This document shows positions 21,938 through 33,254 of a stretch of DNA of 64,000 nt, in pieces; position 1 is the first letter of the stretch, and each line of letters begins with the position of its first letter. A program made the translations under genes and the position numbers. Origin of the DNA: Candidatus Melainabacteria bacterium. GTDB lineage: Bacteria > Cyanobacteriota > Vampirovibrionia > 2-02-FULL-35-15. Location: NCBI GenBank assembly GCA_016193285.1, contig JACPSL010000038.1, positions 1-64,000 on the forward strand, read 5' to 3'. Under the pieces are notes generated by a model. That model was given only the letters and a program-made list of their open reading frames with translations. It was not told the origin of the DNA and made no database searches.

Positions 21938-24202
21938 TTAAGATAAGTGATTCTCTAAAGCATTTTCCCAGATATTTTTTAGCTCTCTTATGTTTGTTGT
22001 AATATTTAAATCATCTATGGTTATGCTTCCATCTGTAACTTTACCAATTAACTCATAAGGACAATTTGCTTCTCTTAGATATTTCTCTACGTACTGTAAA
22101 TTATTTTTATTTGTGCTAATTACAATACGACTTTGAGTTTCGCCAAATAACAATGCATCTAAACAAAGAGCTGACAGCTGACAGCTGATAGCTGATAGCT
22201 TAAAACCAACTTCATTTTGAAATCCACACTCACAAAGCGTTATAAGTAGCCCTCCAACTGAACAATCATGTGCAGATTTAATTAGTTTTCTTTTTATAAG
22301 TTCTCTTACAGAAGCTTGAACTATTTTTTCTAAATCAAAACTTAGCTCTGGTACCTTACCTTTAACTTCATTGGTTTGTAAGTATAAATATTCAGATGCA
22401 CCAATTTCGTTTTTTTGTTTACCTAAAAGTAAAATTAAATCTTCTGGTGCTTTAAAAGAATGATCTATTACTAAATTAACATCATCAATGTAGCCAATCA
22501 TGCCAATTACAGGAGTAGGCCAAATATCTATTCCACTTGCTTCATTATAAAGACTAACGTTACCTCCAGTAACAGGAGTATCTAGAAAAGCACATGCTTC
22601 TTTAATTCCTTTTGTAGATTCAACAAGCTGCCAGTAGATCTCAGGCTTTTCAGGATTTCCAAAATTTAAATTATTTGTAATTGCAATTGGTAATGCTCCT
22701 GTACAAGAAACATTTCTTGCAGCTTCAGCTACTGCAATTTTTGATCCAAGATATGGATCAAGATAGACATACATTGAGTTACCATCAAGAGAAACAGCAA
22801 GCCCAGGTCTATGGTCTATGGTCTGTAGTCTATGGTCCACAGTCTGTAGTCTTATTATTCCAGCACTTCCACCAGGCTTAATAATTGTATTTGTTTGTAC
22901 CTGGTGATCGTATTTTGAGTAAATCCATTTTTTAGAACAAATATTTGGTGAAGCTAAAAGTTTTTTTAAGACTGGTAAAACTTCTTCTTTTTTTAAATCA
23001 GGAATTAAGTCTTGATTAAATAATTTGTTTTTCTTAAAATACTCAGGTTCTTGTGCTTCTCTTTTATAAACAGGTGTAGTAGCAACTAAAACTTTTGCGT
23101 CAATGTCAACTATAATTTTATTTTTATGTTTAACAATTACTTTGCCATGATTTTTAATTTCACCAATTTGTACTGAATCTAGCCCCCATTTTTTAAATAT
23201 TTCTAAAATTTGTTTTTCAACCCCTTTTTTAACTACAAAAAGCATTCTTTCCTGGGATTCTGAAAGCATGTATTCAACTGGAGTTAAAGTATCAGTGCGG
23301 GTTGGGATTTTATCTAAATCAATCTCAATACCAACATTGCCTTTTGCTGACATTTCTGAAATAGAACATGTTAAACCTGCAGCACCCATGTCTTGTGCAG
23401 CTATTATGTAGCCTGTTTTAAAAGCTTCTAAGCATGCTTCAATTAAAACTTTTTCAGTAAAAGGATCACCTACCTGAACAGCAGGCCTGTCTTCATGACT
23501 TTTATTAGTTAAACCAGAGCTTGCAAAACTAGCACCACCTAGTCCGTCACGGCCTGTTTTTGAGCCTACATAAAATACTGGATTTCCAATTCCAGAAGCA
23601 CTTGATTTAACAATTTCTTTTGTCTCAATTAAACCAATAGCCATAGCATTTACAAGAGGGTTTTCATTATAAGTTGGATAAAAATATGCTTCTCCTCCAA
23701 TATTTGGAATGCCAGTACAATTTCCATAGTGAGAAATTCCATTTACTGTACCACTGAATAAAAATCTTGATCTTAGCTTTTCTAAATCTCCAAAACGTAA
23801 ACTATCTAAAATAGCAATTGGTCTAGCTCCCATGGTAAATATATCGCGTAAAATTCCACCAACTCCAGTAGCAGCTCCCTGAAAAGGTTCTACAGCAGTT
23901 GGCCTGTTATGAGATTCAATTTTAAATGCAATTTTAATTTCATCACCAAGATCTATAACACCTGCATTTTCTCCTGGTCCAACAATTACATATTTATTTT
24001 TTGTAGGGAATTCTTTTAGTAATATTTTTGAATTTTTATAACAACAATGTTCAGACCACATTACAGAAAACATATGTAGTTCTACTTCATTTGGTTCTCT
24101 CCCAATAAGTCTAACTATCTCTAAGTATTCATCTGTAGTAAGTTTAAGCTTAGCTAGTAATTCCTTATTTATGTTTAACTCTTCTTTAGTTATGATAGTC
24201 AC
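21938..24202 (-). CDS. purL: Phosphoribosylformylglycinamidine synthase subunit PurL
   Basis: ATP-dependent conversion of FGAR to FGAM in purine synthesis, with ammonia from a PurQ glutaminase not seen in this window. The 754-residue small-type PurL has the N-terminal MWSEHCCYKNSK motif, the ATP-binding VGPGENAGVIDLGD and SHNRPTAVEPFQGAATGVGG segments, and the C-terminal AIRS-like half (SVGGLL, LLFGETQSRIVIS). The start is GTG, directly after the TAA of the upstream SirB1-type gene, so the two are one operon. Two loops are expanded by heptanucleotide repeats: LQTVDHRLQTIDHRP at about 451-465 and KLSAISCQLSALCLD at about 667-681. Flanking core motifs are intact. Confidence 0.94.
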   Translation of the reverse strand: MTIITKEELNINKELLAKLKLTTDEYLEIVRLIGREPNEVELHMFSVMWSEHCCYKNSKILLKEFPTKNKYVIVGPGENAGVIDLGDEIKIAFKIESHNRPTAVEPFQGAATGVGGILRDIFTMGARPIAILDSLRFGDLEKLRSRFLFSGTVNGISHYGNCTGIPNIGGEAYFYPTYNENPLVNAMAIGLIETKEIVKSSASGIGNPVFYVGSKTGRDGLGGASFASSGLTNKSHEDRPAVQVGDPFTEKVLIEACLEAFKTGYIIAAQDMGAAGLTCSISEMSAKGNVGIEIDLDKIPTRTDTLTPVEYMLSESQERMLFVVKKGVEKQILEIFKKWGLDSVQIGEIKNHGKVIVKHKNKIIVDIDAKVLVATTPVYKREAQEPEYFKKNKLFNQDLIPDLKKEEVLPVLKKLLASPNICSKKWIYSKYDHQVQTNTIIKPGGSAGIIRLQTVDHRLQTIDHRPGLAVSLDGNSMYVYLDPYLGSKIAVAEAARNVSCTGALPIAITNNLNFGNPEKPEIYWQLVESTKGIKEACAFLDTPVTGGNVSLYNEASGIDIWPTPVIGMIGYIDDVNLVIDHSFKAPEDLILLLGKQKNEIGASEYLYLQTNEVKGKVPELSFDLEKIVQASVRELIKRKLIKSAHDCSVGGLLITLCECGFQNEVGFKLSAISCQLSALCLDALLFGETQSRIVISTNKNNLQYVEKYLREANCPYELIGKVTDGSITIDDLNITTNIRELKNIWENALENHLS
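22169..22200. repeat. Heptanucleotide repeat (AGCTGAY)4.6 inside purL
   Basis: Units AGCTGAC, AGCTGAC, AGCTGAT, AGCTGAT, AGCT in tandem. Read on the minus strand they encode LSAISCQLSAL in the C-terminal half of PurL just before LCLDALLFGETQSR. The reading frame is kept. Confidence 0.85.
22807..22855. repeat. Heptanucleotide repeat (GTCTRTR)n inside purL
   Basis: Seven 7-nt units: GTCTATG, GTCTATG, GTCTGTA, GTCTATG, GTCCACA, GTCTGTA, GTCTTAT. On the minus strand they encode LQTVDHRLQTIDHRP, a visible 7-residue protein repeat. The same GTCTATR unit forms the array at 50163-50197 upstream of pstC. Confidence 0.85.
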
Positions 24203-28248: not shown

Positions 28249-29331
28249 ATGAAACAAGTTCAATCTAAAGTTAAGCCAATAATTTGGAAAGTAGAGACGG
28301 CTGGCCAGCCGTCTCTACTCGTTTTAGACCAAAGGTTATTGCCGTTTGAAAAAAAATATTTAGAGCTTACTACATATAAAGAAGTCATTCAAGCAATTAA
28401 AGATATGACTGTAAGAGGTGCTCCGCTAATTGGGATTGTTGCAGGCTATGGGATGGCATTGGCAGCATTAGAAGAAGGAGGCAAAGAAGAATTTGTTTCA
28501 TATATGAGAGCAGTTGGTGAAGAAATCAAATCTGCACGACCAACAGCAATAAATTTAAAATGGGCAATTGATTTGATATTAAATGATATTGCATCCGTAG
28601 AGACGCAATTAATTGCATCTCTACGAGACGTAATCACCAAACGTGCAATTTGGATTCATGAAGATGATGCCATGCGTTGCCAAAAAATTGGCGAACATGG
28701 TGCAACCATCGTAGAGTCGCGATTAATCGCGTCTCTACTGACGATATGTAACACTGGCTCGCTTGCTACAGGTGGTATTGGAACTGCATTTGGTGTAATT
28801 TTAACTCTTCACAAAAAAAATCCTAATTTAAAAATATTTGTAGCTGAAACAAGACCTCGCCAACAAGGAGCAAGACTAACTACATTTGAATGTATTGAAA
28901 ATGGAATTGATTGTACTTTAATTTCAGATACTGCCTGTGGTTATTTAATGCAAAAGGGAGAAATAGATTTAGTGATTACAGGGGCTGATAGAATTAGTGC
29001 AAATGGTGATACTGCAAATAAGATTGGTACTTATCAACTTGCAGTTTTAGCTAAAGAAAACAATATTCCTTTTTATGTAGCAGCTCCACTTTCTACATTT
29101 GATCTTTCAATAAAAAGTGGAGAAGAAATTCCAGTTGAAGAAAGAGATCCCAAAGAAGTTTTAGCTACTGGTGGAAAACCAATTTGTGTAAAAGGAACAA
29201 AAGCAATTAATCCTGCCTTTGATGTAACTCCAGCTAGACATATAACTGGCATTATTACTGAAAAAGGGATTTTAAGACCAAATTATAATGAATCAATTCA
29301 AAATATTTTTAACGTAAGTGTAGTTGCTTAA
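28249..29331 (+). CDS. mtnA: Methylthioribose-1-phosphate isomerase MtnA
   Basis: Isomerises 5-methylthioribose-1-phosphate to the ribulose form in methionine salvage or related 5'-deoxy-sugar disposal. The 360-residue protein has LDQRLLP, KDMTVRGAPLIGIVAGYG, the catalytic Cys in CNTGSLATGG and catalytic Asp in ITGADRISANGDTANKIGTY. Three stretches do not belong to the family: VETAGQPSLL (15-24), VETQLIASLR (117-126) and VESRLIASLL (155-164). Each is encoded by a copy of the same 28-nt palindrome in the same reading frame. The last lies four residues before the catalytic-Cys motif. No other methionine-salvage gene is in the window. Confidence 0.92.
   Translation: MKQVQSKVKPIIWKVETAGQPSLLVLDQRLLPFEKKYLELTTYKEVIQAIKDMTVRGAPLIGIVAGYGMALAALEEGGKEEFVSYMRAVGEEIKSARPTAINLKWAIDLILNDIASVETQLIASLRDVITKRAIWIHEDDAMRCQKIGEHGATIVESRLIASLLTICNTGSLATGGIGTAFGVILTLHKKNPNLKIFVAETRPRQQGARLTTFECIENGIDCTLISDTACGYLMQKGEIDLVITGADRISANGDTANKIGTYQLAVLAKENNIPFYVAAPLSTFDLSIKSGEEIPVEERDPKEVLATGGKPICVKGTKAINPAFDVTPARHITGIITEKGILRPNYNESIQNIFNVSVVA
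28291..28318. repeat. 28-nt palindromic element, mtnA copy 1
   Basis: Perfect palindrome with arms GTAGAGACGGCTGG and CCAGCCGTCTCTAC, translated as VETAGQPSL between IIWK and LVLDQRLLP, where relatives have only a two- to four-residue turn. Confidence 0.9.
28597..28624. repeat. 28-nt palindromic element, mtnA copy 2
   Basis: Arms GTAGAGACGCAATT and AATTGCATCTCTAC match except at one position; a flanking C and G extend the stem by one. Translated as VETQLIASL in the same frame as copies 1 and 3. Confidence 0.9.
28711..28738. repeat. 28-nt palindromic element, mtnA copy 3
   Basis: Arms GTAGAGTCGCGATT and AATCGCGTCTCTAC match except at one position. Translated as VESRLIASL, between GEHGATI and LTICNTGSLATGG. 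Confidence 0.9.
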
Positions 29332-29395
29332 GAAGTGTTATCTTTTTTATAATTTTTTTACAAATACCTAATAAATCTCTGATACCATGTTGCTT

Positions 29396-29461
29396 GAACC
29401 TATATTTAGGTTTGGACAAAGGCGTCATTTAAAGACGATGGTGTCTTTCTTAGGAGGACAC
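29396..29461 (+). promoter_or_regulatory. Structured leader of the 20-residue peptide gene
   Basis: Three local hairpins can form: AACCTA-TATT-TAGGTT (29397-29412), CGTC-ATTTAAA-GACG, and AAAGAC-GATGGT-GTCTTT. The last competes with a GTGTC/GACAC pairing that would close over AGGAGG (29452-29457) and hide the ribosome-binding site. Mutually exclusive stems around a Shine-Dalgarno sequence suggest translational regulation. No known riboswitch is recognised. Confidence 0.4.
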
Positions 29462-29524
29462 ATGAGTCCAGTAAATTTTGCCACATGGAGGCCAATGATT
29501 CCATACTGGCAATATAGAAAATGA
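29462..29524 (+). CDS. 20-residue peptide, own transcription unit
   Basis: ATG 29462 follows the near-perfect AGGAGG at 29452-29457. The 20 codons give MSPVNFATWRPMIPYWQYRK, a cationic, aromatic-rich peptide with two Trp and two Tyr, then TGA. A strong hairpin-plus-T terminator begins six bases after the stop. The arrangement (structured leader, best ribosome-binding site in the window, short frame, terminator) is that of a genuine small-protein mRNA or a leader-peptide attenuator. The next gene is 337 bp away beyond the terminator, so attenuation of that gene is less likely. The function is unknown. I do not recognise the peptide. Confidence 0.6.
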   Translation: MSPVNFATWRPMIPYWQYRK

Positions 29525-29530
29525 CGAACA

Positions 29531-29563
29531 AAAAAGAGAGGCAGTAATGCCTCTCTTTTTTTT
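29531..29563 (+). terminator. Rho-independent terminator after the 20-residue peptide gene
   Basis: Stem AAAAAGAGAGGCA / TGCCTCTCTTTTT closes a GTAA tetraloop (GNRA type) and is followed by more T residues. This is the clearest intrinsic terminator in the window. Confidence 0.85.
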
Positions 29564-29860: not shown

Positions 29861-30724
29861 ATGGGTAATGTTAGTAGTGTAGCAAGTGTAACTAATACAA
29901 CTAGAAGTCCAGGTTTAGTTAATAGACTCATTAAGGTAGGACTGCTTGGACTTGCAGGTGCTGGAGTACTTGGGAATGAAGTTTCAACTCGCTTGGAGTT
30001 ACAAAATCAGACTGCGCAAGTTAAAGAGCTTCAAAACAAATTTGATTCTCGAGTTACTTTAGATCAAATTATGGAAATTGTAGAAAAAGTTTCTCCTTCC
30101 ACCGTAATGGTTAAAGGCCCAGAGGGTCTTGGCTCAGGAATGATTTTTACTGACAGATATGGTACAAGATTTATCTTAACTAATGGTCATGTTACTGAAA
30201 GCAATCAGTTTGAAGAAAATGAATTCAGGGATGGTGTTTATTCAATTAGACTTTATAATGGCAGCGATTACAGTGAACCAATTAAATTTTATGCAGCTCC
30301 AGTAATTTTAAGTAGTGGAAAAAGAGCATATGCAAGTCCAGAGACAAAAGATCTAGCACTGTTACAAGTTCCTCCTAATGTTATTTTGCCTCCTAGTATT
30401 GGACTAAGTTTTAGAGATATAAATGATCCAGTAAGAGTTGGAGAATGTGTTATTGCAATTGGAAATCCATTTGGAGAAACAGACTCAATAAGTTTTGGTA
30501 TTGTAAGCCATGTAGATAGAAAATCAGATTTAAATGAAAATCATCACTTTCAAACAGATGCTGCAATTAATCCAGGGAATTCTGGTGGAGTATTAGTTGA
30601 TATGAAAGGAAAAGTAATAGGAATAAATACCTGGGGTTACAGGGGTACAAATGGTGTTGGTGGAACAATTAAATTTGATGAAATCTTAAAGGTTCTTACT
30701 GACTGGGGTATACAATTATTGTAA
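29861..30724 (+). CDS. Trypsin-like (DegP/HtrA-type) serine protease without PDZ
   Basis: AAGGAG precedes ATG 29861. The 287-residue protein has a hydrophobic N-terminal segment (about 25-41, IKVGLLGLAGAGVLG) and a chymotrypsin fold. The triad is complete: His110 in LTNGHV, Asp164 in TKDLALLQV and Ser241 in NPGNSGG. IGNPFGETDSISFGIVSHVD is the HtrA/DegP signature. No PDZ domain follows, and the protein ends shortly after the catalytic domain, so it is a minimal HtrA-type enzyme. A paralogue follows at 30872, showing tandem duplication. Confidence 0.88.
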   Translation: MGNVSSVASVTNTTRSPGLVNRLIKVGLLGLAGAGVLGNEVSTRLELQNQTAQVKELQNKFDSRVTLDQIMEIVEKVSPSTVMVKGPEGLGSGMIFTDRYGTRFILTNGHVTESNQFEENEFRDGVYSIRLYNGSDYSEPIKFYAAPVILSSGKRAYASPETKDLALLQVPPNVILPPSIGLSFRDINDPVRVGECVIAIGNPFGETDSISFGIVSHVDRKSDLNENHHFQTDAAINPGNSGGVLVDMKGKVIGINTWGYRGTNGVGGTIKFDEILKVLTDWGIQLL

Positions 30725-30857: not shown

Positions 30858-30875
30858 ATGAAAGTTGCTGTATGA
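30858..30875 (+). CDS. Five-codon upstream reading frame coupled to the second protease gene
   Basis: ATG AAA GTT GCT GTA TGA (Met-Lys-Val-Ala-Val) is preceded by AAGGTG and ends in TGA that overlaps the start ATG of the next gene (ATGA). Such a minimal frame could feed ribosomes to the main gene by reinitiation. No other support. Confidence 0.3.
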   Translation: MKVAV

Positions 30876-31867
30876 ATGTACAGAGAACAAGCCCTTTAGT
30901 TAAGTTCATAGGTGTACTAGGAACCTTAGCTGGAGCTGGATTTCTTGGAGATGAAACAACAATCCCATCTAATATTGCTCATGCGCAGACTCCCTTAATA
31001 AAAGAACTTAAAAAAGATTCAGCAATAACTTATGAAGAAGAAGTAGAAGCAATTAATAAATTTGCACCATCAACAGGTGCAGTTATAGGACAATTTGGGC
31101 AAGGATCTTATTCATGCATTTCTGTTAAGGATAAAGAAGGAAATGATAAAATGCTCTTGCTTTCTGTTGAACATGTAGTAAGTGATGTTACTCTTAAAAA
31201 TTTAGATGGTTCTACAGTACAAGTTAGTAATGCTCTACAAGAAGATGGTATGTTTGGGATTAGACCTTATGACGGAAGTGACTTTGGTAAAAGTGAACAA
31301 TTTCTTGCGCCAGTTTTAGGTTTTGATAAACACTATGACTTAGCAGTATTAGATCCAAGTGGAAACCATTTACCACCCATTAAAATGAGGAACTTAATTA
31401 AACACCCTTTAAAAGTTGGTGAAAGAGGATTTCTAATTGGAAATGGACAAGGTTTAAAAGATACTTTAGTACCATTTAGGATTTCACATTTAAATAGATT
31501 AACTAAGTGGTACTATTACCCAAACATTCAACTATATGGAATATTCCCAGGAGGAAATTCTGGAGCTGGTGCTGTAGTCTTAAGAAAAGATAAGGAAACT
31601 GGTGAAGTAATCCCAGAATTAATAGGAGTACTACACTCAAACGTAGGTGTTGGCCAAGCCCAGGTACTTCCAATCACCTTTGTTAAAAGATTCTTAGAAC
31701 CTCTGGGTTATAAAGCTTTAGATCCTGATGAAAGACAAGCCTGGAGGGAAGAAAGTTTAGCTCAACTAGAGCGTTTTATGTTTCCTCTACCTGTCCATGG
31801 AAATCCTGCAGTGACAGGACCAATATTAGGTTATGTGCCAAGTAAATTAATACCACTGAAGCATTAA
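30872..31867 (+). CDS. Divergent trypsin-like serine protease paralogue
   Basis: A 331-residue protein related to the preceding gene. N-terminal hydrophobic stretch (FIGVLGTLAGAGFLGD) and an Ala-His-Ala-Gln site at about 37-40 suggest export. The triad remains: His101 in LLSVEHVVSD, Asp156 in HYDLAVLD, Ser230 in PGGNSGAGAV. The loops between are longer than in the first copy, and the GNPFG motif has become GNGQG. It may have other substrates. A C-terminal extension of about 55 residues (PDERQAWREESLAQLERFMF) is unmatched in the first copy. Confidence 0.78.
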   Translation: MNVQRTSPLVKFIGVLGTLAGAGFLGDETTIPSNIAHAQTPLIKELKKDSAITYEEEVEAINKFAPSTGAVIGQFGQGSYSCISVKDKEGNDKMLLLSVEHVVSDVTLKNLDGSTVQVSNALQEDGMFGIRPYDGSDFGKSEQFLAPVLGFDKHYDLAVLDPSGNHLPPIKMRNLIKHPLKVGERGFLIGNGQGLKDTLVPFRISHLNRLTKWYYYPNIQLYGIFPGGNSGAGAVVLRKDKETGEVIPELIGVLHSNVGVGQAQVLPITFVKRFLEPLGYKALDPDERQAWREESLAQLERFMFPLPVHGNPAVTGPILGYVPSKLIPLKH

Positions 31868-31904: not shown

Positions 31905-33254
31905 ATGAATGTAATTTTTATTACACCTGAATGTGAACATTTTGCAAGATTAAGTGAAGTTGGTGATTTTGTAACTTCACTAGCAAGGGCTGTTGAAAGA
32001 GAAGGACATAATGTAAAAGTTTTTATTCCACGTTATGGTTGCATTGATCCAGTAATCTGTCATATTGAAAGATTGCCCTTTGAGTTTAAGTTAAAAATAC
32101 CTACTTTTACTACCCAAGCATTTGTTTATAAAGGAATTTTACCTAATTCATTAATCGGGGTGTTTTTAATTGAAAGCCAAAACTACTTTAGTAACTCAAA
32201 AGAAATTTATCTGGGAGGAAATGTAGATGAAGAAAGGTTTAACTTCTTTTCTATGGCATCTCTTGAAGTTATTTCAGAATTGAAGTTTGAGCCTCATGTA
32301 ATTCACATCATTAATCCTCTTACTTCTTATGTTGCTAAAGAGCATACTTCTTTAAGAAAGGCCGGTGTTGTTTTTACAATTCATGATATCTATGGTTTAA
32401 GTAATAGTTTAATCAAGGCAACAAACGATGCAATTCTGCACTCTAACATTACAACTATTGCCTCTAAGGCTTTTTTAAAAGACATACTAGAAGACAACGA
32501 ACTTTTAATTCAAAAGAAAGAAAGTTTTATTGACATAGAAAGTGCTTATGATACAGATTTTTATAATCCTGAAAAAGATAATTTCATTGCTCAAACATAT
32601 TCAAAGGATTATTTTTCTAGCGGAAAAAGAAAATGTAAGGAAGATTTACTTGGACATTGTGAGCTAGAAAAAAACATAGATATTCCACTTTTTGGTATGC
32701 ATACACCACTTTTAAATGAAAACGAATTTGATATTTTTTTAAATGCTTTGCCAGAAATTGTAAATTTAAAAGCTCAATTTCTAATAATTGGAAGAAAAAA
32801 TAAATCTTACGAGCATGAAATGGAAAAGATTACAAACAGATCTAAAAATGTAAAAACGTGTTTTGATTATGATTTTGCCCTTTCAAAAAAACTATTGGCC
32901 GGATCAGATTTTTTTCTAAGCCCTGACAAATACCAGCCAAGTGGTATGTCTGTTGCTATTGCTATGAGGTATGGAAGCGTTCCAATTTGTTATAGAAAAG
33001 GTGCAGTAAAAGATATGATTCTAGATAATGGAATTCTTTTTCACGACTATAGTCAAGATTGCCTTGTCGAAGCTATAAATATAGCAATTAAGTATTATAA
33101 GAATAAAGAAAGGTGGACTAAGTTAGTAAAACAAGCAATGAGTTTTGAAGTGTCTACTCAAAAAATGGCTCAAGAATATATAAAGTGCTATGAAAAAAGT
33201 TTACCCTTCGCTACCACTTATTATTCCGGAAGCAGAGTTAAAGACATTGTTTAA
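31905..33254 (+). CDS. GT5 (glycogen/starch synthase-like) glycosyltransferase with altered active site
   Basis: A 449-residue GT-B protein. The N-terminal start (MNVIFITPECEHFARLSEVG, then DFVTSLARAVEREGHNVKVF) aligns with glycogen synthase (SSExxPFAKTGGLADVVGALPxALxxxGHDVxVxxPRY), but the nucleotide-binding KTGGL is replaced by RLSEV. In the C-terminal half the conserved S(R/x)FEPCGLxQxxAMRYG reads DKYQPSGMSVAIAMRYG, so the catalytic Glu is Gln. Both changes suggest it is not a normal glycogen synthase and may be inactive or have a new role. TACAAT lies 13 bases before ATG; the last 54 bases overlap the convergent gene. Confidence 0.72.
   Translation: MNVIFITPECEHFARLSEVGDFVTSLARAVEREGHNVKVFIPRYGCIDPVICHIERLPFEFKLKIPTFTTQAFVYKGILPNSLIGVFLIESQNYFSNSKEIYLGGNVDEERFNFFSMASLEVISELKFEPHVIHIINPLTSYVAKEHTSLRKAGVVFTIHDIYGLSNSLIKATNDAILHSNITTIASKAFLKDILEDNELLIQKKESFIDIESAYDTDFYNPEKDNFIAQTYSKDYFSSGKRKCKEDLLGHCELEKNIDIPLFGMHTPLLNENEFDIFLNALPEIVNLKAQFLIIGRKNKSYEHEMEKITNRSKNVKTCFDYDFALSKKLLAGSDFFLSPDKYQPSGMSVAIAMRYGSVPICYRKGAVKDMILDNGILFHDYSQDCLVEAINIAIKYYKNKERWTKLVKQAMSFEVSTQKMAQEYIKCYEKSLPFATTYYSGSRVKDIV

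What the first reader, a model, noticed from the sequence alone, without database searches (positions are those of the whole stretch)
29396..29563. A 20-codon transcription unit with structured leader and terminator
Seen: competing hairpins, AGGAGG, ATG, 20 codons giving MSPVNFATWRPMIPYWQYRK, TGA and a 13-bp terminator with a GTAA loop. The peptide is cationic and aromatic, possibly membrane-active or a signal. Stems can hide the ribosome-binding site, suggesting controlled translation. It stands alone, unlike an attenuator, though the tandem proteases downstream could be functionally linked (for example as processing or immunity partners).
Basis: inference. Interest (0 to 1): 0.75.

Follow-up and report, generated by a model that had tools for sequence, protein, structure and literature searches.

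The report
Switch-controlled mini-peptide gene in Melainabacteria
A tiny stand-alone gene, conserved across one family of uncultured relatives of cyanobacteria, makes a very short proline-rich, positively charged peptide, and its RNA has a switch over the start site that looks built for the cell's one ANTAR-type RNA-binding signal protein.

Summary
Window 29380-29563 is a complete small transcription unit: extended -10 promoter, two tandem six-base-loop hairpins, a third hairpin hiding the Shine-Dalgarno (SD) site, a 20-codon ORF and a terminator. The same unit occurs once in each of 10 of the 11 held genomes of this Melainabacteria family and in no other genome searched. The peptides (15-26 aa) diverge fast but are really coded: no Asp/Glu in 159 residues (10.3 expected), threefold proline excess, K/R near the C-terminus in 8 of 9. 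The hairpins match the two-hexaloop ANTAR-target RNA: loop position 4 is G and position 2 is A in 20 of 20 loops, closing pairs are A-U/C-G, linkers are 7-10 nt. Hairpin P2 and the SD-hiding hairpin exclude each other. Every family genome at least 90% complete has exactly one REC-ANTAR regulator with a HisKA_2 kinase. Best explanation: an ANTAR-controlled translational switch for a dedicated mini-peptide. Against it: loop position 1 is A in only 12 of 20, the G4-stacking tyrosine is Met in all eight regulators, and there are no expression or binding data. The protease link is loose (adjacent in 7 of 10, inverted once). Peptide function is unknown.

The parts
29380..29388 (+). Extended -10 promoter element TGATACCAT (TGnTATAAT-like); predicted transcription start about 29395
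   Evidence: Sequence; an extended -10 at the matching place in all 10 genomes. Prediction only, no transcript data.
29397..29412 (+). Optional 5' hairpin AACCTATATTTAGGTT; similar short hairpins in some relatives (G003, G006, G009, G008), not in all
29415..29426 (+). Hairpin P1: GAC-AAAGGC-GUC (hexaloop, position 2 A, position 4 G)
   Evidence: Arms invariant in 10/10, loop position 4 G in 10/10
29431..29448 (+). Hairpin P2: AAAGAC-GAUGGU-GUCUUU (hexaloop, position 4 G); linker of 7 nt between GUC of P1 and GAC of P2
   Evidence: 4-7 bp in all 10 genomes; excludes the SD hairpin
29441..29461 (+). SD-hiding hairpin GUGUCUUUC/GGAGGACAC (9 bp, loop UUA); OFF state
   Evidence: z -2.9 to -4.8 in 9 of 10 genomes, not in G007; pairing probability 0.97 here
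29452..29457 (+). Shine-Dalgarno AGGAGG
29462..29524 (+). Short ORF, 20 codons, MSPVNFATWRPMIPYWQYRK, stop TGA
29530..29563 (+). Intrinsic terminator: AAAAAAGAGAGGCA-GTAA-TGCCTCTCTTTTTT plus T run
   Evidence: dG about -18.6; a terminator follows the ORF in all 10 genomes
29861..30724 (+). Neighbour: trypsin-like (Trypsin_2, HtrA-related) protease; ortholog next to the unit in 7 of 10 genomes
   Evidence: association judged loose
30872..31867 (+). Neighbour: second, divergent trypsin-like protease
31905..33254 (+). Neighbour: glycogen/starch synthase-like glycosyltransferase (glgA-like), near the unit in 8 of 10 genomes

Best explanation
The feature is an independent mRNA of about 170 nt (150-190 nt in relatives) that encodes a 20-aa proline-rich, cationic, aromatic peptide under translational control. 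Its leader is a two-hexaloop RNA of the kind bound by ANTAR-domain response regulators. Left alone, the RNA folds so that GUGUCUUUC pairs with GGAGGACAC and hides the SD. When the cell's single REC-ANTAR regulator, phosphorylated by its neighbouring HisKA_2 kinase, binds hairpins P1 and P2 as they leave the polymerase, P2 captures the GUCUUU strand, the SD hairpin cannot form, and the peptide is made. This is the translational counterpart of ANTAR antitermination. Shown here: conservation of every part, mutual exclusion of P2 and the SD hairpin by prediction, selection on the peptide, and presence of the ANTAR system. Inferred: ANTAR binding, ON as the outcome of binding, and peptide function (a secreted or intracellular effector whose sequence diversifies while its charge and proline content are kept).
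For: The unit occurs once per genome in 10 of 11 family genomes and nowhere else among 382 class genomes, the exact-pattern scan of 84,980 species genomes, or the viral contigs. Loops: position 4 G 20/20, position 2 A 20/20, position 1 purine 20/20; the eut consensus is AGC-AANGRR-GCUY and G4 is the base that EutV stacks on. Closing pairs are AC..GU, the pairs whose sequence matters in eutP, which would explain why the arms never covary. Linkers are 7-10 nt against 5-12 in eut. P2 and the SD hairpin both use GUC(UU): P2 4-7 bp in 10/10, SD hairpin strong in 9/10. The ANTAR regulator is present in 8/8 family genomes >=90% complete, one per genome, each in an operon with a HisKA_2 kinase; closest solved structures are Rv1626/PdtaR (8e-50) and EutV (1e-36). 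ANTAR is rare in the class (18 of 382). EutV RNA contacts R142, K143, K147, K149, E160, M172 and R175 are kept. Peptide selection: D/E 0 vs 10.3 expected (0 of 5000 shuffles), Pro 19 vs 5.9 (0 of 5000), K/R in the last two residues 8/9 vs 2.1 (holds without one of the two same-genus sequences); codon-position differences 2/4/11 between G001 and G002 (p = 0.008).
Against: Loop position 1 is A in only 12 of 20 loops (G in 8, including P2 of the window). EutV Tyr164, which stacks on G4, is Met in all eight family regulators (kept as Tyr in the nine regulators of family f4), so recognition would have to differ. In G007 the SD hairpin is weak. P1 is only 3-5 bp, and the SD hairpin is much more stable than P2 at equilibrium, so the switch must act during transcription. 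The stems do not covary. The co-occurrence rests on one clade, so it is one evolutionary event. Two element-bearing genomes (G005, 89% complete; G008, 79%) lack a detectable ANTAR. There are no transcript, ribosome or binding data.
Confidence: 0.58

Rival explanations
1. The transcript is mainly an ANTAR sponge, like EutX/Rli55: a small RNA that titrates the ANTAR regulator, with the peptide as a by-product or a second function.
For: Stand-alone short RNA with its own promoter and terminator and a dual hexaloop. The only other matches to the AC-closed dual-hexaloop pattern in the family are scattered ones at the control rate.
Against: Strong selection on peptide composition and conserved SD/ATG. 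No other conserved ANTAR target was found whose regulation a sponge could relieve, though other stem types were not scanned.
Confidence: 0.12
2. A translational switch driven by something other than ANTAR: a ligand binding the three-way junction formed by GAC1:GUC3, GUC1:GAC2 and GUC2:GAC3, another RNA-binding protein, or temperature.
For: The junction is the minimum-energy fold in G000, G003, G004 and G008. The third GUC is kept although the codon changes from AGTCC to AGCGTY. Tyr164 is lost in the family ANTAR.
Against: The outer helix is not kept in all genomes. No Rfam match. CsrA is absent from the own genome and from 8 of 11 family genomes. Loop positions and closing pairs fit ANTAR better than chance would suggest.
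Confidence: 0.18
3. A leader-peptide attenuator in cis for the downstream protease/glgA operon.
For: Short ORF followed by a terminator upstream of a protease (7 of 10) or, in G006, G009 and G003, directly of glgA.
Against: In G007 the unit points away from protease and glgA. No antiterminator overlaps the terminator, and the switch acts on the SD instead. The stop-to-terminator gap varies from 1 to 22 nt. The downstream gene differs between genomes.
Confidence: 0.07
4. The peptide is a partner (substrate, inhibitor or immunity factor) of the adjacent trypsin-like protease.
For: Adjacent in 7 of 10 genomes, including two (G001, G002) where glgA lies elsewhere.
Against: The ortholog lies elsewhere in G006 and G009 and is missing in G003, while the unit stays. 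No shared promoter; opposite orientation in G007.
Confidence: 0.12
5. The paired GAC-N6-GTC motifs are DNA operator sites for a repressor just downstream of the promoter, not RNA hairpins.
For: Arms are invariant palindromes without covariation, close behind the -10 box.
Against: Centre spacing varies from 19 to 22 bp, which breaks helical phasing; the motif occurs once in the own genome, so there is no regulon; P2 extends to AAGAC/GUCUU and competes with the SD hairpin.
Confidence: 0.06

Closest known systems
ANTAR-target two-hexaloop RNAs (eutP/eutG leaders with EutV, nasF with NasR, amiE with AmiR; PMC3369931, PMC8934654)
   Same: Two short stem-loops with six-base loops, G at position 4 and A at position 2, AC..GU closing pairs, linker of 7-10 nt, second hairpin excludes a competing hairpin, REC-ANTAR regulator with a HisKA_2 kinase in the genome
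   Different: Position 1 is A in only 12 of 20 loops; the competing hairpin hides an SD rather than being a terminator; the target is a stand-alone mini-peptide mRNA; Tyr164 is Met in the family ANTAR
ANTAR RNAs that overlap the RBS or AUG in actinobacteria and mycobacteria (PMC8164766)
   Same: Dual hairpin next to the SD; control of translation initiation
   Different: There the SD or AUG lies inside the ANTAR hairpins and binding represses; here the SD lies downstream of P2 and is hidden by an alternative hairpin, so binding should activate
EutX / Rli55 riboswitch-controlled sponge RNAs (mentioned in PMC8934654)
   Same: Short independent RNA carrying a dual hexaloop
   Different: Here the RNA carries a selected short ORF; no cobalamin riboswitch (no Rfam match)
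Apidaecin-type proline-rich antimicrobial peptides (PMC11347161)
   Same: 15-26 aa, proline-rich, cationic, no acidic residues, R/K-P motifs
   Different: The C-terminal PRPxHPRL needed by apidaecin is absent; bacterial origin; no activity known

Membership tests
ANTAR-target RNA | Two tandem stem-loops with hexanucleotide loops | tested here: met
   P1 and P2 with 6-nt loops in 10/10 genomes
ANTAR-target RNA | G at loop position 4 in both loops | tested here: met
   20 of 20 loops
ANTAR-target RNA | A at loop position 1 in both loops | tested here: inconclusive
   A in 12 of 20, G in 8 of 20; A1 is not contacted by EutV in the crystal structure
ANTAR-target RNA | Linker of suitable length (5-12 nt in eut; 2-25 nt accepted in actinobacteria) | tested here: met
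   7-10 nt; literature
ANTAR-target RNA | P2 mutually exclusive with a terminator or RBS-blocking structure | tested here: met
   Shared GUC(UU) strand; SD hairpin in 9/10, weak in G007. Computed, not measured
ANTAR-target RNA | ANTAR-domain protein in the same genome | tested here: met
   8/8 family genomes >=90% complete, one each; not found in three less complete genomes, two of which carry the unit
ANTAR-target RNA | Regulator keeps the RNA-contact residues of EutV | tested here: inconclusive
   Seven contacts kept, Tyr164 replaced by Met in 8/8, R168 by Gln and R177 lost
ANTAR-target RNA | Binding by the ANTAR protein | not testable with these tools
   Needs gel shift or SPR
Apidaecin-type PrAMP | C-terminal PRPxHPRL-like segment (P11, R12, R17, L18) | tested here: not met
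   None of the ten peptides has it (criteria)
CsrA-regulated leader | GGA in hairpin loops and CsrA in the genome | tested here: not met
   Loops carry RANGNN, mostly without GGA; CsrA absent in own genome and in 8 of 11
Leader-peptide attenuator | Alternative structures involving the terminator, regulated gene downstream in cis | tested here: not met
   Competing hairpins involve the SD only; inverted in G007; downstream gene varies
Any Rfam 15 family | Covariance model match at gathering score | tested here: not met
   0 matches in the window; only sub-threshold matches at the locus, mostly to its terminator hairpin

The most novel reading that the evidence does not exclude
A dedicated two-component/ANTAR system whose one conserved target of this stem type is a stand-alone mRNA for a fast-diversifying, acid-free, proline-rich mini-peptide (a signal or antimicrobial made on demand), read through an altered ANTAR-RNA code in which Met replaces the G4-stacking tyrosine and loop position 1 is any purine.
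Probability: 0.35. Interest if true: 0.78.

Novelty: new variant of a known kind. Interest (0 to 1): 0.62.

Why it matters
ANTAR regulators are best known for releasing operons from termination, and their signals and targets are unknown in most phyla. This would place an ANTAR target RNA in the non-photosynthetic sister group of Cyanobacteria, show control of translation by freeing a hidden SD, and make the output a micro-peptide too short for gene callers to annotate. The peptide family, with conserved leader, free-running sequence and fixed charge and proline content, is a concrete candidate for a signal or antimicrobial in organisms that cannot yet be grown. The Tyr-to-Met change in the regulator makes the ANTAR recognition rule directly testable.

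Tried and rejected
Rfam families: none at gathering score; the sub-threshold MicX and RsmZ matches are judged chance. CsrA control: rejected, no CsrA in the own genome. An upstream ORF through the loop AUGs: rejected, the frame is not kept among relatives. Weak model matches outside the family: the Prevotellaceae match L066 (34.9 bits) lies inside a fasciclin-like coding sequence, and three weak matches followed up (f4 and G010) also lie in or on genes. A search for further AC-closed dual hexaloops in the family gave only scattered, non-conserved matches at the control rate. Viral contigs: none. Pfam on the peptides: none. Two paper look-ups failed on short search terms and were repeated.

Full report
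What is there. Nine of its family relatives carry the same unit and are deposited as Candidatus Melainabacteria or Caenarcanales MAGs, several of them from groundwater by their names. The finding sits between an IF-2B-family gene annotated here as mtnA-like (28249-29331) and two trypsin-like protease genes (29861-30724, 30872-31867), followed by a glgA-like gene. The unit reads: extended -10 TGATACCAT (29380-29388), predicted start about 29395, P1 GAC-AAAGGC-GUC (29415-29426), P2 AAAGAC-GAUGGU-GUCUUU (29431-29448), AGGAGG (29452-29457), ATG (29462), 20 codons, TGA (29522-29524), terminator (29530-29563). The whole folds far better than shuffles (z = -6.6).

It is conserved. A first nucleotide search found the leader in nine relatives. 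Their leaders, ORFs and terminators are listed; an extended -10 and an intrinsic terminator are present in all ten, with predicted transcripts of 148-192 nt. A covariance model finds it once per genome in 10 of 11 family genomes, at 60-83 bits, and in no other of 382 class genomes above about 24 bits. An exact-pattern scan of 84,980 species genomes gave nine Melainabacteria loci; the sixteen others score far lower with the model, and the best of them is inside a coding sequence. The family genome without it, G010, is 86% complete and also lacks a detectable glgA.

The peptide is coded. The ten reading frames diverge fast, except that the start is always MS[P/V]. That part is forced at least partly by RNA: the third GUC is kept whether the codons read AGT-CC or AGC-GTY. 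After codon 3, nine peptides hold 159 residues with no Asp or Glu (10.3 expected from shuffles of the same bases, 0 of 5000 as low), 19 Pro (5.9 expected, 0 of 5000), 28 aromatic (17.3 expected, p = 0.0016) and K/R among the last two residues in 8 of 9 (2.1 expected). The two other forward frames hold 13 stops each. Dropping one of two same-genus sequences changes nothing. In G001 the frame is interrupted at a T run, and a peptide like that of G002 continues in another frame; compared piece by piece, the differences fall 2/4/11 on codon positions 1/2/3. So translation of a cationic, acid-free, proline-rich peptide is the selected outcome, though its exact sequence is not fixed.

The switch. 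P2 (4-7 bp) is present in all ten and the SD hairpin is significantly stable in nine (z -2.9 to -4.8); they use the same GUC(UU) strand and exclude each other. At equilibrium the SD hairpin wins nearly everywhere, so P2 needs help or speed. An alternative three-way junction made of the same arms is the minimum-energy fold in four genomes. The arms are all GAC or GUC, which lets each pair with several others and limits covariation, so covariation cannot decide between folds.

What could throw the switch. Tandem hairpins with six-base loops, G at position 4, AC..GU closing pairs and a short linker characterise ANTAR-target RNAs (PMC3369931, PMC8934654). Here position 4 is G and position 2 is A in all 20 loops, position 1 is A in 12 and G in 8, closing pairs are AC..GU throughout, and linkers are 7-10 nt. 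That lead was then tested: an ANTAR protein is present in all eight family genomes at least 90% complete, exactly one each, in an operon with a HisKA_2 kinase. In the class it is otherwise confined to family f4 and one genome of f5 (18 of 382 in all). The Fisher value for co-occurrence among near-complete genomes is 1e-12, but all carriers belong to one clade, so it counts as one event. The own protein is closest to PdtaR (8e-50) and EutV (1e-36). Of the EutV RNA contacts, R142, K143, K147, K149, E160, M172 and R175 are kept, while Tyr164, which stacks on G4, is Met in all eight family proteins and Tyr in the nine of family f4. This is the main weakness of the ANTAR reading, or, if binding holds, a changed recognition code.

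Direction. In mycobacteria ANTAR binding near the RBS represses (PMC8164766). Here the SD lies beyond P2 and is hidden by a separate hairpin that P2 destroys, so activation is the likelier outcome, as in antitermination. This is inference.

Neighbours. A protease ortholog is adjacent in 7 of 10 genomes, in two of them with glgA elsewhere; in G006 and G009 the ortholog lies elsewhere, in G003 there is no close ortholog, and in G007 the unit is inverted. In G006, G009 and G003 the unit directly precedes glgA. This fits an old shared neighbourhood better than a strict partnership, and it argues against a cis attenuator.

Verdict. A real, conserved, stand-alone mini-peptide gene with a translational switch (near certain as an element; switch about 0.75), most likely an ANTAR target (about 0.6). 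Peptide function is open: the composition resembles proline-rich antimicrobial peptides, but the apidaecin C-terminal signature is absent.

Noticed in passing
window 28290-28319, 28596-28625, 28711-28738: Three palindromes of the type GTAGAGACGCGATTAATCGCGTCTCTAC lie inside the mtnA-like coding sequence without breaking its frame; a pattern for this family matches at about ten sites in the own genome and also in G009, G007 and G001. It looks like a mobile palindromic repeat tolerated inside a protein gene.
   Followed up: partly
L006 (G001), ORF starting at 1553: The mini-peptide frame is interrupted at a T6 run and a G002-like peptide continues in another frame; assembly error, decay or slippage cannot be told apart.
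   Followed up: partly
L111 1486-2956 (own genome C6) and the same operon in seven relatives: REC-ANTAR plus HisKA_2 kinase operon, resembling PdtaR/PdtaS, with the canonical G4-stacking Tyr replaced by Met in the whole family.
   Followed up: yes
families f4 and G319 of the same class: They carry a REC-ANTAR regulator (in the nine f4 proteins with the canonical Tyr) but no unit of this kind; their ANTAR targets are unknown.
   Followed up: no
window 21938-24202 (- strand): The purL-like protein contains repeat-like inserts (TVDHRLQTIDHR, LSAISCQLSA), possibly translated repeats like those in mtnA.
   Followed up: no
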